A model generated the notes under the pieces. It worked only from the letters and a program-made list of their open reading frames with translations. It was not told the DNA's origin and searched no databases. From a virus, in the IMG/VR virus record IMGVR_UViG_3300032245_000585, positions 1 to 34,129 of that record: a stretch of DNA of 34,129 nucleotides; one strand, given 5' to 3'. Of the stretch, positions 1 to 34,129 are shown piece by piece; position 1 is the first letter of the stretch, and each line of letters begins with the position of its first letter. Both the position numbers and the translations under genes were made by a program.

Positions 1-123
1 ATCCAGGTACGTGCCATTGCCGTATTTGATGCGTTCGCCGACCTTCACGTCGTGAACTTTGGGGCCGATGGCCACAATTGTGCCTTCGTTAAATTTTTCC
101 TTGTTTTCCACGATCAAAACGTC
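1..123. repeat. Terminal direct repeat, left copy
   Basis: Bases 1-123 are identical to 34007-34129. The repeat lies inside one open reading frame (the GroES-like gene) that is restored when the two ends are joined. This is best read as the overlap of a circular assembly, giving a 34,006-bp unit genome. Confidence 0.97.
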
Positions 124-183
124 CGACAAACTGCGAACGATTGGTTTGACCAGGACACGATCATGCAGCGGTGTTACCAGCAT
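1..183 (-). CDS. groES: GroES-like co-chaperonin, N-terminal part (cut by window edge)
   Basis: This is a Cpn10/GroES-family protein. It would cap a GroEL-type chaperonin (the host's, since no GroEL gene is present) and help fold phage proteins, most plausibly the coat protein, as T4 gp31 does. The ATG is at 183, and 61 codons run to the window edge. The remaining 25 residues lie at 33929-34006, giving 86 aa in the circle. The N-terminus has the family pattern LHDRVLVKP, then IVENKEKFNEGTIVAIGPK, then VKVGERIKYGNG, with a slightly short mobile loop (about residues 17-28). It overlaps the upstream Cys-rich gene (161-400) by 23 bases and lies in the late block ahead of the terminase genes. The family call is strong; the coat-folding role is inferred. 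Confidence 0.9.
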   Translation of the reverse strand, partial: MLVTPLHDRVLVKPIVRSLSDVLIVENKEKFNEGTIVAIGPKVHDVKVGERIKYGNGTYLD

Positions 184-400
184 CTTTAGGCTTCCTTCCA
201 GGTTTCTTAGGGGCGGGCATCGTGGCTTCGGTGGTGGTGTCCGTCATAATGTCGTACACCGGCAGCGTCACCATTTTGATTTTGTGTTCGCCGCACCAAT
301 CGTTTTGGTGCTTGTTTTGGGGCGCCGGATACCGGCGGCAAGTCCCCATCACCTGGGCGTTGCGGAAAAATTCGCACGATAGACACGTCGGATCAACCAT
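161..400 (-). CDS. Small four-cysteine protein, probably zinc-binding
   Basis: The protein has 79 aa. Cys6 and Cys9 form a CxxC pair, followed by Cys21 in a CRRYP context and Cys36 in a WCGEHK context, so a single zinc site is likely in the first 40 residues. The C-terminal third is basic and Pro/Lys-rich (APKKPGRKPK), like a nucleic-acid-binding tail. The ATG at 400 has an AAGGGG ribosome site and overlaps the stop of the upstream 60-aa gene by 8 bases; its own end overlaps the GroES start. Small Cys4 proteins of this form are common in tailed phages and have no known function. I cannot say more than possible zinc binding. Confidence 0.75.
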   Translation of the reverse strand: MVDPTCLSCEFFRNAQVMGTCRRYPAPQNKHQNDWCGEHKIKMVTLPVYDIMTDTTTEATMPAPKKPGRKPKDAGNTAA

Positions 401-575
401 TGGGTAATTCCCCTTTTTGCACGGCTTCGTTTAAACCGCGGGCGATTGCTTCGGCCATTGCTGTGGCTTCGGCTTCGTTTCTACGGTTTTCCCGATGCTG
501 CGCGGGCGTAATCCGCTGTTCCTCGGTAAATGGCGTCACTAATGGCGCCTGACTTCTTGGCTCGTTCGAGTGCAT
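393..575 (-). CDS. Hypothetical 60-aa protein overlapping the kinase gene
   Basis: A hydrophilic, helix-rich 60-aa protein (Glu/Ala/Arg-rich, residues 20-50) with no recognised family. The start is well supported: a GGAAAGGA ribosome site lies about seven bases before the ATG at 575. The first 95 bases lie in another frame inside the 3' end of the zeta-like kinase gene. The stop overlaps the start of the next gene by 8 bases, so translation is probably coupled. Its place right after a zeta-like kinase invites the idea of a partner or antidote protein, but the sequence itself does not show this. Confidence 0.65.
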   Translation of the reverse strand: MHSNEPRSQAPLVTPFTEEQRITPAQHRENRRNEAEATAMAEAIARGLNEAVQKGELPNG

Positions 576-1398
576 CTTGTAATCCTTTCCTCACTTCATT
601 TTCCTTCAGTTTAGGCAACTTGTCAAGGCTGCTTAACTGGGCTTTGCCCGCGCCACGGCTGTTGTCTATGACGCGGATTTGAACCTGGGGGTTGTTGCGA
701 TACTTGGCTGCAATCTGCTCGATCACTTGGCGGGCGCCAAGGTGCGTTTTTATGTGTTCGGAAAGAGGTACGGTGCGGCCGGTTCCCATTGATTCTTCCA
801 TTCGCTTGGCCCGCTTCAAAGCGCCGTTTTCCAAGGCTTCAATGGGGTCGCGGTAAGTGTAAACAATGTCCACTTTACGCTTGGCGTCCAATGCCTGGCG
901 AATCTTTTTGTCGGCCGAATCAAACGAATTCATGTTGGTGTCGTACACCAGTTCCGCTTTGCCCAAACGTGGATCGACCTTTTTGGCCATTTCCATGCCG
1001 CTGGTTTTGCCAGCCCCCGTGCCGCCAGCCGTAAAAACTACGGTTGCGTTTCGGTCTTTGGGCGTTGGGTTGGCCAGTTTGTCGGCATATAAACGTTTGA
1101 CAAACGCGCTAGATGGCTCATGCACGTCGGCCGACTTCGTGCGGTCGGCGCGGTAATGTTCCGACAATTCACGGGCCACGTCGGTGTTCAACGTGCGCCC
1201 CTGGTCGGATTCCATCAATTGCTGGTACTGCTGCACCAGGCCAGGATAGTCAGTTTGCAGCCGCCCGAAATATTCCTCTGTGATAGGATTTTCAGGTTGG
1301 TCGCCCATTTGCGGCTGCGGCGCAAGCGCGGAAAGCCGGTTCCCGACCGGCATTTGACCTGGCTGCACCGCTGCCATTGCTGACAGCGGGGTGGCCAT
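481..1398 (-). CDS. Zeta-toxin-like P-loop kinase
   Basis: A 305-aa protein with a textbook Walker A motif, GGTGAGKT, at about residues 125-132. It is followed by YDTNMNSFDSADKKIRQAL, a beta-strand ending in VDIVYTYRDP, and an Arg-rich stretch ending in GRTVP. This is the layout of zeta-toxin/UNAG-kinase-like domains, which phosphorylate small molecules such as UDP-N-acetylglucosamine. The first 115 residues are an Ala/Pro/Gln-rich tail plus a helical region. The ATG at 1398 was chosen because it overlaps the upstream stop as TAATG. A TTG at 1431 in the same frame would add 11 residues. It sits in the late block, between small conserved phage genes and GroES. The substrate and biological effect are unknown, and no epsilon-type antitoxin is recognisable. 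Confidence 0.75.
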   Translation of the reverse strand: MATPLSAMAAVQPGQMPVGNRLSALAPQPQMGDQPENPITEEYFGRLQTDYPGLVQQYQQLMESDQGRTLNTDVARELSEHYRADRTKSADVHEPSSAFVKRLYADKLANPTPKDRNATVVFTAGGTGAGKTSGMEMAKKVDPRLGKAELVYDTNMNSFDSADKKIRQALDAKRKVDIVYTYRDPIEALENGALKRAKRMEESMGTGRTVPLSEHIKTHLGARQVIEQIAAKYRNNPQVQIRVIDNSRGAGKAQLSSLDKLPKLKENEVRKGLQDALERAKKSGAISDAIYRGTADYARAASGKP

Positions 1399-1613
1399 TA
1401 CATTTTGCCGTTGCGGCTGTGTGTGTAGCAAACGCCGCTGGTGCGGCCGCCGTCAAATTTCTTGTCGGCGCCAGTTGCATCGGCTTTGCCCATTGCAATG
1501 CCGTTTTTAATCATGCCCTTGCGTTCGCCACCGGCGTCGCTGGCTTTCACGCCGGAAGGTTCTTTTGAATTGCTGCCGTAGCCGTAGCCTTTGGGTTGGT
1601 TCATTGCTGACAT
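1398..1613 (-). CDS. Conserved phage protein, 71 aa, Gly/Lys-rich
   Basis: A 71-aa hydrophilic protein with a Gly/Ser/Lys-rich N-terminus and a C-terminal FDGGRTSGVCYTHSR motif. I recognise the GGRT-GVCY ending from small proteins encoded near terminase genes in many podoviruses; no function is known. The ATG at 1613 is preferred over 1628 because an AAAGGGAA ribosome site lies just upstream of it. The stop shares one base with the kinase start (TAATG), so the two genes are translationally coupled. Confidence 0.7.
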   Translation of the reverse strand: MSAMNQPKGYGYGSNSKEPSGVKASDAGGERKGMIKNGIAMGKADATGADKKFDGGRTSGVCYTHSRNGKM

Positions 1614-1624
1614 GGTTTTCCCTT

Positions 1625-1984
1625 TCATTTGAGGAATCGAAGTTTATACAACGTGGAATTGATAAGGTCGGCGATTTCGTCAACCAGGTTTTGCAATTCC
1701 GTATCTTGTGGCAAATCCTGACGGGCATTTTCCACAAAATCTTTTAGGCTGGTAAAGTATTCCACGGGGTCTTTGGCATTGTGGAATTCTTGCGGCCAAG
1801 ATTTCAACTGCTCATATCGCCCCATAAAACATTCGGCATAATCATCAACCAGGTCAATGATGTTGTTGTAGTAATGGCGAAGTGCTTTGTGTTGGGAATA
1901 CGAATTCGTGGACAAGTGCATAAAGTGTGCAACTGTCCCCGAATGCAGCAAGGCTGCAACAAATTCGGCTGATTCATTTTCCAT
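1625..1984 (-). CDS. DUF5856-like (ferritin/Dps-like) phage protein
   Basis: A 119-aa all-helical protein with the pattern MHLSTNSYSQHKALRHYYNNI, followed by DLVDDYAECFMGRY. This matches the phage DUF5856 family, whose His/Glu/Asp-bearing helix pair resembles Dps and ferritin-like proteins. It might bind metal or DNA, but no activity is established. The ATG at 1984 gives the family-like N-terminus; a longer in-frame extension to 2068 would read through the terminator hairpin and is rejected. No good ribosome site is seen. It is the first gene of the late block, only 18 bases downstream of the terminator U-tract. Confidence 0.75.
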   Translation of the reverse strand: MENESAEFVAALLHSGTVAHFMHLSTNSYSQHKALRHYYNNIIDLVDDYAECFMGRYEQLKSWPQEFHNAKDPVEYFTSLKDFVENARQDLPQDTELQNLVDEIADLINSTLYKLRFLK

Positions 1985-2002
1985 ATATTGTGATGATAGT
2001 GG

Positions 2003-2029
2003 AAAAAACGGGGGGCGCAAACCCCCCCG
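2003..2029 (-). terminator. Rho-independent terminator ending the leftward early block
   Basis: Read leftward, a G+C-only stem of about seven pairs (2023-2029 with 2009-2015) and a seven-base loop are followed at once by six Ts (2008-2003). It lies between the HNH-type gene (stop at 2041) and the Dps-like gene (start at 1984). There is no room for a promoter downstream of it, so the late genes must be reached by read-through or antitermination. Confidence 0.85.
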
Positions 2030-2040
2030 CGCAAAATGGC

Positions 2041-2418
2041 TTACTGCAAAGAAAAAAGCCGTTCCCATTCTGCCGGATCAGGCATGGGCACGTCAACTGG
2101 CCATTTGCCGCTATCAACCAGGTGTTGAACGGTCTTCATGTGCGCCACGTAAAAGGCTTGCTGGCGTTCTTTTTTTGACCATTGGGCGCCTTGGTCAATG
2201 TCGTAATGACACGACGCGCACAATGCAGCCGTAAGATTGTCGTCGGCCTTGATGCCGCGGCCCTTGCCCCCGCCCCAATTTGTGTGCGCTGCCTGGACAA
2301 AATGCCCGCTGCCGCACAATTGGCAATCCAGGCTGGCCACCAGGCGCAATAACTTTTTACTTCGAACGTAGGGGTGTTTTGGTATTTGCATAATTTGTTT
2401 TTTGCGCCAGCCGGTCAA
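2041..2418 (-). CDS. HNH-type zinc protein (YbcO/DUF1364- or DUF968-like)
   Basis: A 125-aa protein with CQLC (Cys32, Cys35), AAHTNW (His45), a GKGRGIKADD segment, and LCASCHYDID (Cys67, Cys70, His71, Asp73). The two CxxC pairs around an H-N-H-like core match small phage nuclease-like proteins found beside NinB and other recombination genes. It probably acts on DNA junctions or ends, but activity is inferred. The TTG at 2418 was chosen because TTGA overlaps the stop of the preceding zinc-ribbon gene and a GGAG site lies eight bases upstream. An ATG at 2391 is possible. It is the last gene before the terminator. Confidence 0.75.
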   Translation of the reverse strand: MTGWRKKQIMQIPKHPYVRSKKLLRLVASLDCQLCGSGHFVQAAHTNWGGGKGRGIKADDNLTAALCASCHYDIDQGAQWSKKERQQAFYVAHMKTVQHLVDSGKWPVDVPMPDPAEWERLFSLQ

Positions 2419-5235: not shown

Positions 5236-5784
5236 ATGTCAAACGTTCAATATTTCTCTTGTGCCGAAACTGCAAAATTGGTTCGCGTTGCTCTCAAAGA
5301 ATCTTTCCCTGGTGTCAAGTTCAGCGTCAAATCCAGCGTCTATTCCGGCGGCGCCAGCATCAACATTCGTTATGAAAACGGCCCAACATACAACCAGGTT
5401 AAGGCCGTTGTCGGTATGTTCGAAGGCGCCTATTTCGACGGCATGACAGATTACAAAGGCTTGAATTACGGCAGCATGGACGGCAACGAAGTTCGGTTTG
5501 GCGCTGACTTCATTTTCGTGAATCGCAAGTTCACCAAAGCATTTTTGGAAGGCGCGGTCGAAGCGGCTTGCAAATACTACGGTTATGCAATGCCAGTTGT
5601 CACCGAAGGTTACGACGGCGCTTACATCGCCGACCGGCTCGATTACGAAACCAACCGCCGCGTCATGGCCAAGATTGAGGAAATCAGCCTTTGCGATACC
5701 AAGGAAAGCGCCACATTGGCCCGCGTCGGCTTCCTGGGCGACGACGGTTACGGTTGGAACGCTGTTGGCCGCAAGGCCGCATAA
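5236..5784 (+). CDS. LPD29-like domain protein
   Basis: A 182-aa protein. The stretch ETAKLVRVALKESFPGVKF, then SVYSGGASINIRY, and later GMFEGAYFDGMTDY match the large polyvalent-protein-associated domain LPD29. That domain is found alone in phages and fused into large phage and plasmid proteins; its biochemical role is unknown. It is the first gene of the rightward early block. An AAGGAA site lies six bases before the ATG, and a ~42-base leader separates it from promoter 1. An open frame exists on the opposite strand over the same bases but has no regulatory signals and is treated as a shadow. Confidence 0.8.
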   Translation: MSNVQYFSCAETAKLVRVALKESFPGVKFSVKSSVYSGGASINIRYENGPTYNQVKAVVGMFEGAYFDGMTDYKGLNYGSMDGNEVRFGADFIFVNRKFTKAFLEGAVEAACKYYGYAMPVVTEGYDGAYIADRLDYETNRRVMAKIEEISLCDTKESATLARVGFLGDDGYGWNAVGRKAA

Positions 5785-9041: not shown

Positions 9042-9457
9042 GCAATCACGGCGCCGGTTTTTAACTGCGCCAGCGTTTGGCCGCCGGTGTATTGAAAATG
9101 TGCCAATTCACGAAACGATTTCCAACGTCCGGCCCATTCCAGGCCCGCTTCTTCACCTAGTTCACCAATACGCGCCCAAACGGGATGTGAACCATCCCAA
9201 TCGGGCTTGCCGTTGACCAGGGGAACAACATCAACCGCGCACCGCCAGTTATGCCAGGAATCGCCAGCCTTGGCGTTGGTGACGATCTTGCCTGGTGCGT
9301 TGCGCCCTTGGGAATACAACGCGTTTTGGCTTTCCTGATCGCGGTAGGTGGAAGTCACCAAAAGGTCAATACCTTCCATGTTGCATAATTTGATGAACCG
9401 TTCCACGCGTTCTTTGACCGGTGGCAACAATTCGTCCAGGCTGCGGCTGCTTATCAC
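9038..9457 (-). CDS. M15-family endolysin (L-alanyl-D-glutamate peptidase type)
   Basis: A 139-aa single-domain peptidase. Zinc ligands are visible in SWHNWRCAVD (His69, Asp76) and AHFQY (His120), with STYRDQESQ forming the usual N-terminal motif. Such enzymes cut peptide cross-links of the cell wall, and there is no signal peptide, so it needs the holin encoded next door. The GTG at 9457 was chosen because GTGA overlaps the holin stop. The frame continues open to 9529 but lacks a good start there. It is the last gene of the late block. Confidence 0.88.
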   Translation of the reverse strand: MISSRSLDELLPPVKERVERFIKLCNMEGIDLLVTSTYRDQESQNALYSQGRNAPGKIVTNAKAGDSWHNWRCAVDVVPLVNGKPDWDGSHPVWARIGELGEEAGLEWAGRWKSFRELAHFQYTGGQTLAQLKTGAVIA

Positions 9458-9858
9458 TTGGTCACGCCTTGCACTTTTTCGTATGTTCGCAAACCGCCCA
9501 AACCCAACATTCCCAAAAGCAATTGCCAAAGGTTGTCGTCAAGGCCCACCAAAGGCGGCAAAGGATGTCCAGCGGCGGCGAAAACGCCCTGGGCAATAGG
9601 ACGTACTAGGTATTGATAAAACAGCGCCAGCGCACAAACCCATCCAATGGCGGGGCGCCAACCGGCCACAAACACGGATGCGTTTTGCGCTTCGGCTTTG
9701 TTGATTTCCAATTGACCGGTTATTTGCGCCAAATCGCCGGATTGCTGCAATTTCAACAGTTCAAGTTTTGCAGTTGCTGCCTGGCTTGGATCAGGCCACA
9801 AACGATCAATTAGTTTGCCGCCAATGTCTAACGCTGCCGAAACCGGATCGAACGCCAT
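9454..9858 (-). CDS. Holin, three-TM family
   Basis: A 134-aa protein. The N-terminal helix (LDIGGKLIDRLWPDPSQAATAKLELLKL) is followed by NASVFVAGWRPAIGWVCALAL, the signature of the 3-TM phage holin family also found in gene transfer agents, and then further hydrophobic stretches (QYLVRPIAQGVFAA and LWQLLLGMLGLGGL). It should open the inner membrane to release the endolysin. AAGGGG precedes the ATG at 9858. It overlaps the endolysin start by four bases. Confidence 0.88.
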   Translation of the reverse strand: MAFDPVSAALDIGGKLIDRLWPDPSQAATAKLELLKLQQSGDLAQITGQLEINKAEAQNASVFVAGWRPAIGWVCALALFYQYLVRPIAQGVFAAAGHPLPPLVGLDDNLWQLLLGMLGLGGLRTYEKVQGVTK

Positions 9859-33928: not shown

Positions 33929-34129
33929 TCAATCCTCAATGACGCAAGCCACGTCGCCTTCCTGGATCAATTGGTGGTCTTCACCGTCGATTTTGTGGAC
34001 GGGCCAATCCAGGTACGTGCCATTGCCGTATTTGATGCGTTCGCCGACCTTCACGTCGTGAACTTTGGGGCCGATGGCCACAATTGTGCCTTCGTTAAAT
34101 TTTTCCTTGTTTTCCACGATCAAAACGTC
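33929..34129 (-). CDS. groES: GroES-like co-chaperonin, C-terminal part
   Basis: This copy holds residues 21-86 of the protein whose start is at 183, including the 25 C-terminal residues (WPVHKIDGEDHQLIQEGDVACVIED) missing from the left end. The DHQLIQEGDVACVIED ending corresponds to the family's last strands, where bacterial GroES reads LIMSESDILAIVE. It should be merged with 1-183 in the circular map; the TTG at 34123 is an internal codon, not a start. Confidence 0.9.
   Translation of the reverse strand, partial: DVLIVENKEKFNEGTIVAIGPKVHDVKVGERIKYGNGTYLDWPVHKIDGEDHQLIQEGDVACVIED
34007..34129. repeat. Terminal direct repeat, right copy
   Basis: Exact copy of bases 1-123. Removing one copy restores a single uninterrupted GroES-like frame. 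Confidence 0.97.

What the first reader, a model, noticed from the sequence alone, without database searches (positions are those of the whole stretch)
481..1398. Zeta-toxin-like kinase among late genes, no recognised antitoxin
Zeta-family kinases poison cells by phosphorylating cell-wall precursors. Here one is coupled to a virion-block gene by TAATG. Possible roles are helping lysis by blocking wall synthesis, excluding other phages, or modifying a phage substrate. The overlapping 60-aa gene (393-575), with a strong ribosome site, is the nearest candidate for a partner.
Basis: partly seen in the sequence, partly recalled or inferred. Interest (0 to 1): 0.6.

Follow-up and report, generated by a model that had tools for sequence, protein, structure and literature searches.

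The report
Phage zeta kinase with overlapping partner
A phage carries a rearranged zeta-family sugar-nucleotide kinase, like one known toxin from Neisseria, and a 60-residue gene overlapping its end; among related phages the two are present or absent only together, which points to a kinase and its dedicated partner, probably a toxin-antitoxin-like pair.

Summary
The gene is real: window 481-1398 (-), 305 aa, Zeta_toxin at E 6e-11. It is not a standard zeta kinase. The block with the catalytic Asp (NTDxAR...VHEPSS, residues 68-109) lies before the P-loop instead of after it. This swapped order is known from gonococcal ng_zeta1 (profile E 3e-35; model TM 0.71 against 6EPH, 0.32-0.46 against classical zeta toxins). 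Catalytic Asp, P-loop Lys and both active-site Arg are invariant. The two residues that hold the lactoyl group of UDP-MurNAc in ng_zeta1 are changed (K59>R, N75>S), so the exact substrate is open.

The 60-aa overlapping gene is real too: all 52 loci found from it carry the kinase, it is under purifying selection and has a strong ribosome site, while the kinase has none. Around the conserved upstream gene, 52 phages have both genes and 27 have neither; no intact locus has one alone. The tree needs at least five switches, and empty sites are clean.

Best reading: a two-gene accessory module, a ng_zeta1-type UDP-sugar kinase with a dedicated small partner, probably its inhibitor. Toxicity, substrate, inhibition and role in infection are inferred. 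New variant of a known kind.

The parts
481..1398 (-). Zeta-type P-loop kinase, 305 aa, with blocks in swapped order (Asp block, P-loop, DTN block)
   Evidence: Pfam PF06414 E 6e-11; profile hit to ng_zeta1 6eph E 2.7e-35; AF2 model pLDDT 81, TM 0.71 to 6eph
1072..1197 (-). Catalytic-Asp block, residues 68-109 (RTLNTDVARELSEHYRADRTKSADVHEPSSAFVKRLYADKLA), N-terminal of the P-loop; holds D73, R76, S89
   Evidence: In relative L019/G004 the Pfam Zeta_toxin stretches run in the order 29-88, 9-39, 97-178 along the protein; invariant in 18 relatives
1003..1026 (-). P-loop GGTGAGKT, residues 125-132, catalytic K131
   Evidence: invariant except T/S at the last position; equals K115 of ng_zeta1
925..945 (-). 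DTN block YDTNMNS, residues 152-158 (DGT motif of classical zeta)
   Evidence: invariant in 18 relatives; the Pfam stretch 95-188 starts here
775..813 (-). Active-site arginines R196 and R208 (residues 196-208), equal to R175 and R181 of ng_zeta1
1288..1398 (-). Low-confidence Pro/Gln/Ala-rich N-terminal tail, residues 1-37
   Evidence: pLDDT below 50 for residues 1-35; length varies between relatives
393..575 (-). 60-aa overlapping gene, candidate inhibitor or partner of the kinase
   Evidence: all 52 loci found with it carry the kinase; dN/dS 0.32 beyond the overlap; strong SD in 24 of 24; predicted tail plus one helix 24-54
580..592 (-). Shine-Dalgarno stretch of the 60-aa gene (GAGGAAAGGATTA), inside the 3' coding part of the kinase
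1398..1628 (-). 76-aa upstream gene of unknown function, translationally coupled to the kinase (TAATG); stays when the pair is absent

Best explanation
The gene and the 60-aa gene that overlaps its end form a two-gene accessory module of a P22-like podophage. The first encodes a zeta-type kinase of the rewired ng_zeta1 class, which most likely uses ATP to phosphorylate UDP-activated sugars, draining precursors of the cell wall or envelope of the infected cell. The second encodes a small, mostly non-globular protein made from a strong ribosome site, most likely the dedicated partner that restrains the kinase until it is needed. SHOWN: family, swapped block order, complete catalytic set, conserved gene pair, coding selection on the small gene, joint presence and absence. 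INFERRED: activity, substrate, inhibition by the small protein, and the benefit to the phage (stopping wall synthesis late in infection or blocking competitors).
For: Zeta_toxin match. Swapped block order seen directly in a relative (profile 29-88, then 9-39, then 97-178). Full-length collinear match to ng_zeta1, E 2.7e-35; model TM 0.71 to 6eph against 0.32-0.46 to classical zeta toxins. D73, K131, R196 and R208, equal to D56, K115, R175 and R181 of ng_zeta1, invariant in 18 relatives (residue roles from PMC5923241). ng_zeta1 is a lytic UDP-sugar C4' kinase held by a small non-globular antitoxin (PMC5923241). 79 loci: 52 with both genes, 27 with neither; 5-6 switches, both genes each time. 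Clean empty site in phages with about 95% identical flanks: L164 against L161 resumes at the end of the pair. Small gene: SD median -6.8 kcal/mol in 24 of 24, kinase -1.3, random ATG -2.2; dN/dS 0.32 in the non-overlapping part.
Against: The residues that contact the lactoyl group of UNAM (K59, N75) are R76 and S89 here, so UNAM preference may be lost. The 60-aa protein has no detectable sequence likeness to any solved chain, ng_epsilon1 included. The genes overlap by 74-95 bp, so joint loss by one deletion is easier than for separate genes. The kinase comes first, unlike the G094 locus, where a small gene precedes the kinase. No tyrosine integrase was found, so classical prophage addiction is less likely. 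Nothing here shows toxicity.
Confidence: 0.55

Rival explanations
1. Virion-delivered effector: the kinase is packaged and ejected with the DNA, and acts in the next cell at entry (weakening the wall or blocking a host function), with the 60-aa protein as packaging helper or guard in the producer cell.
For: Collinear domain relatives lie inside giant proteins: 878 aa in MW202577, 1851 aa with a DdrB-ParB domain in a Rubrivivax MAG next to a protein like phrog_2534 'released from the phage upon host infection', 2681 aa with ART-PolyVal and LPD22. Iyer et al. 2017 propose such a role for zeta domains of polyvalent and MuF proteins (PMC5512222). The kinase has a low-confidence Pro/Gln-rich tail.
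Against: Here it is a free-standing gene away from the ejection genes; the window's 866-aa putative ejection protein shows no significant likeness to the giant proteins.
Confidence: 0.2
2. The kinase acts on another small molecule or on nucleic acid ends (NAD as AvrRxo1 does, nucleotides, or RNA repair as T4 Pnk does), for counter-defence or metabolism, and is not a wall poison.
For: Substrate contacts K59 and N75 of ng_zeta1 are replaced throughout the phage group; the DTN motif stands in place of the EGQ of ng_zeta1; the fold search also ranks the NAD kinase AvrRxo1.
Against: The nearest solved relative by far is ng_zeta1, with the same arginines; an Arg in place of Lys can still bind a carboxylate or phosphate.
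Confidence: 0.17
3. The 60-aa gene is an unrelated small phage gene that shares the fate of the kinase only because the two overlap and are lost by one deletion.
For: Overlap of 74-119 bp in all loci read; no likeness to a known antitoxin.
Against: No orphan of either gene at 27 empty sites and in 52 small-gene loci found independently; neighbours on both sides stay in place.
Confidence: 0.25
4. Lysis helper: the kinase is made late, uninhibited, and blocks wall synthesis so that the phage endolysin (9038-9529) and holin (9454-9858) work faster.
For: ng_zeta1 expression lyses E. coli (PMC5923241); the phage has its own M15 peptidase and holin.
Against: The gene lies upstream of packaging genes, not in the lysis block; 27 close relatives do without it; it does not explain the linked small gene.
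Confidence: 0.15

Closest known systems
ng_zeta1 / ng_epsilon1 of Neisseria gonorrhoeae conjugative plasmids (PDB 6EPG, 6EPH, 6EPI)
   Same: Swapped order of blocks, collinear over about 240 residues (profile E 2.7e-35), TM 0.71, catalytic Asp/Lys/Arg/Arg; a small non-globular partner gene
   Different: No OB domain at the C terminus, K59>R and N75>S in the substrate pocket, partner unrelated in sequence and placed after the kinase, phage not plasmid
Classical epsilon/zeta and PezAT (1GVN, 3Q8X, 2P5T)
   Same: P-loop kinase fold, catalytic Asp, DGT/DTN block, arginines
   Different: Order of blocks (classical: P-loop, then Asp block); TM only 0.32-0.46; no sign of a three-helix-bundle epsilon antitoxin here
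Zeta domains of polyvalent / MuF proteins of phages and conjugative elements (Iyer et al. 2017, PMC5512222)
   Same: The domain in MW202577, L039 and L040 is collinear with the window protein, including the swapped order
   Different: There a domain of an 878-2681 aa protein; here a free gene with a 60-aa partner
AvrRxo1 (4Z8Q)
   Same: Zeta-like fold in the structure search
   Different: E 3.5e-3 and TM 0.39 only; an NAD kinase and plant effector of Xanthomonas; no sequence match

Membership tests
Zeta_toxin superfamily (PF06414) | Score above the curated cut-off | tested here: met
   42.6 bits against 22.3
Zeta_toxin superfamily (PF06414) | Walker A, catalytic Asp, active-site Arg | tested here: met
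   K131, D73, R196, R208 invariant in 18 sequences
Classical epsilon/zeta (streptococcal) | P-loop before the Asp block | tested here: not met
   Asp block precedes the P-loop
Classical epsilon/zeta (streptococcal) | Epsilon-type three-helix-bundle antitoxin | tested here: not met
   Neighbours have no such Pfam match; the 60-aa model is a tail plus one helix
ng_zeta1 rewired subfamily | Swapped block order, collinear with ng_zeta1 | tested here: met
ng_zeta1 rewired subfamily | UNAM-contacting Lys59 and Asn75 | tested here: not met
   R76 and S89 in all 18 phage sequences; K and N kept in the Pandoraea plasmid protein
ng_zeta1 rewired subfamily | C4' phosphorylation of UDP-sugars | not testable with these tools
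   needs an enzyme assay
Type II toxin-antitoxin module | Two adjacent, co-inherited genes | tested here: met
   52 both, 27 neither, none single in intact loci; at least 5 switches
Type II toxin-antitoxin module | Toxicity of the kinase and neutralisation by the partner | not testable with these tools
   needs expression tests
Ejected polyvalent protein | Large multidomain protein | tested here: not met
   Single-domain 305-aa protein
Ejected polyvalent protein | Packaged in the virion | not testable with these tools
   needs virion proteomics

The most novel reading that the evidence does not exclude
A phage-borne toxin-antitoxin-like module in which a rewired zeta kinase with a changed substrate pocket is controlled by a new class of 60-aa inhibitor whose gene begins inside the kinase gene, exchanged as a cassette between otherwise near-identical phages to alter host wall metabolism or exclude competitors.
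Probability: 0.35. Interest if true: 0.7.

Novelty: new variant of a known kind. Interest (0 to 1): 0.5.

Why it matters
Phage zeta domains have been noted mostly as parts of large injected proteins or as bare annotations. Here a free kinase and a small overlapping gene are inherited as one unit with natural empty sites. That gives a ready genetic test of what such kinases do for a phage, a candidate new inhibitor of the ng_zeta1 class, and a substrate pocket that differs from the only solved member.

Tried and rejected
Circular permutation in the strict sense: rejected; only the first two blocks are exchanged (B-A-C), as in ng_zeta1. Loss of the catalytic Asp (suggested by the Pfam gap at positions 39-94): rejected, the block is present upstream. 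Homology of the giant zeta-bearing proteins to the window's 866-aa protein: not significant. Likeness of the 60-aa protein to any solved chain: none; it is not detected near the other rewired relatives. An integrase that would make this a prophage addiction module: none of the tyrosine family found. Named-phage relatives: only MW202577 in the phage collection, so no host could be assigned; the closest terminases are also from uncultured Manatee Spring phages. A Pseudomonas plasmid hit (L051) is a classical-order zeta and served as contrast. Not done: a search with an artificially reordered protein, because searching the pieces apart and the natural relatives answered the question.

Full report
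Observation. The frame at 481-1398 on the - strand encodes 305 aa and matches Pfam Zeta_toxin at E 6.2e-11, above the curated cut-off. PHROGs has no match. Its ATG overlaps the stop of a 76-aa gene (TAATG), and the 60-aa gene 393-575 overlaps its end by 95 bp. The window is a 34-kb record with a 123-bp direct terminal repeat, so probably a circular assembly. Portal, terminase, coat and a DNA-ejection protein are present, with a 3-TM holin and an M15 peptidase.

Swapped order. The Pfam match covers profile positions 9-38 (P-loop) and 95-188 only. The missing part, which holds the catalytic Asp, is not lost. It stands before the P-loop as GRxLNTDxARE(L/M)SxxYRxDRTxSADVHEPSSA, invariant in large part in 18 relatives. 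In the phage of locus L019 the Pfam stretches are found along the protein in the order 29-88, 9-39, 97-178; in L021 and L033 the N-terminal part alone matches positions 42-88, weakly (E 0.05-0.1). The solved relative is ng_zeta1: profile E 2.7e-35, collinear over its kinase domain. An AlphaFold2 model (pLDDT 81, pTM 0.77) fits 6eph at TM 0.71, while classical zeta toxins reach 0.32-0.46 with rmsd 8-14 A. The authors of ng_zeta1 describe the same exchange of two sequence blocks (PMC5923241). The topology is therefore known, not new.

Active site. From the printed alignment, D56, K115, R175 and R181 of ng_zeta1 correspond to D73, K131, R196 and R208, all invariant. Their roles are taken from PMC5923241. 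K59 and N75, which hold the lactoyl group of UDP-MurNAc, correspond to R76 and S89, also invariant in the phage group. The Pandoraea plasmid protein keeps K and N, as does the 399-aa protein of G094 by eye. The phage enzyme is thus expected to be an active kinase whose exact substrate may differ. This is inference.

Relatives. 35 IMG/VR contigs carry the gene at 58-97% identity. In named or bacterial records the collinear domain lies in an 878-aa protein (MW202577), an 1851-aa protein with a DdrB-ParB domain (L039) and a 2681-aa protein with ART-PolyVal and LPD22 domains (L040). It is rare in bacterial genomes: 2 full-length matches in 300 of the same order as the Rubrivivax MAG, one of them that MAG itself, and no further full-length match in a sample of 398 of the phylum.

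The pair. A search with the 60-aa family alone found 52 loci, all with the kinase upstream. A search with the upstream 76-aa family gave 80 loci. With the window, 79 usable loci split into 52 with both genes and 27 with neither, all 27 showing the GroES gene downstream; the single locus with the kinase alone (L172) comes from a contig that ends inside the kinase gene. A tree of the flanking proteins needs 6 changes, 5 on well-supported branches, and the two genes always change together; with 5 pairs the sign test cannot reach 0.05 (p 0.0625). In L164 against L161, flanks of 94-95% identity stop at the end of the 76-aa gene and resume at the end of the 60-aa gene, so the unit is just these two genes. 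Because the genes overlap, joint deletion is favoured mechanically; what speaks for function is that no orphan was seen.

Expression and coding. The 60-aa gene has a strong Shine-Dalgarno stretch in 24 of 24 loci (median -6.8 kcal/mol), the kinase none (-1.3; random ATG -2.2), so the kinase probably depends on coupling to the 76-aa gene. Outside the overlap the small gene has dN/dS 0.32, the kinase 0.20. The small protein is predicted as a loose N-terminal half and one helix, residues 24-54 (pLDDT 78, pTM 0.42). ng_epsilon1 is likewise described as extended and not globular, but there is no sequence likeness to any solved chain.

Mechanism. Most likely the kinase phosphorylates UDP-sugars and the 60-aa protein restrains it. 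The first step rests on the class of the enzyme, the second on co-inheritance, size, predicted shape and translation signals. Rivals are delivery with the virion, as proposed for the domain in giant polyvalent proteins (PMC5512222), another substrate, simple linkage of the small gene, and a role in lysis. No tool here can separate these; the experiments are listed.

Verdict. Confirmed gene, corrected class, partner supported. New variant of a known kind; interest 0.5.

Noticed in passing
window 33929-34129 and 1-183 (-), across the joined ends: A GroES (Cpn10) homologue of 86 aa runs across the ends of the record; it lies two genes downstream of the kinase pair and is kept in phages without the pair.
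   Followed up: partly
window 1-123 and 34007-34129: 123-bp direct repeat at the two ends, so the record is probably a circular assembly.
   Followed up: yes
window 1398-1628 (-): 76-aa Gly-rich gene (GYG...GGR.GVCYTH) with 389 relatives in viral contigs and no known family; a good marker for this phage group.
   Followed up: partly
window 1625-2068 (-): DUF5856 protein, PHROG 'starvation-inducible transcriptional regulator', just upstream of the 76-aa gene in this phage group.
   Followed up: no
window 5236-5784 (+): Free-standing LPD29 domain (large polyvalent protein associated domain 29) in the early region.
   Followed up: no
L154, about 629-826: In one phage without the pair a different 65-aa frame (VLHPRTFFLPEVTPIADLVGG...) fills the site, so the site may be a swapping point for small genes.
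   Followed up: no
L040 2199-10244: 2681-aa polyvalent protein with LPD22, ART-PolyVal, a GNAT-like stretch and the rewired zeta domain in a MAG contig.
   Followed up: partly
L183 1453-2652: Bacterial ng_zeta1-like kinase (399 aa) preceded by a 113-aa gene, an unannotated candidate TA pair.
   Followed up: partly
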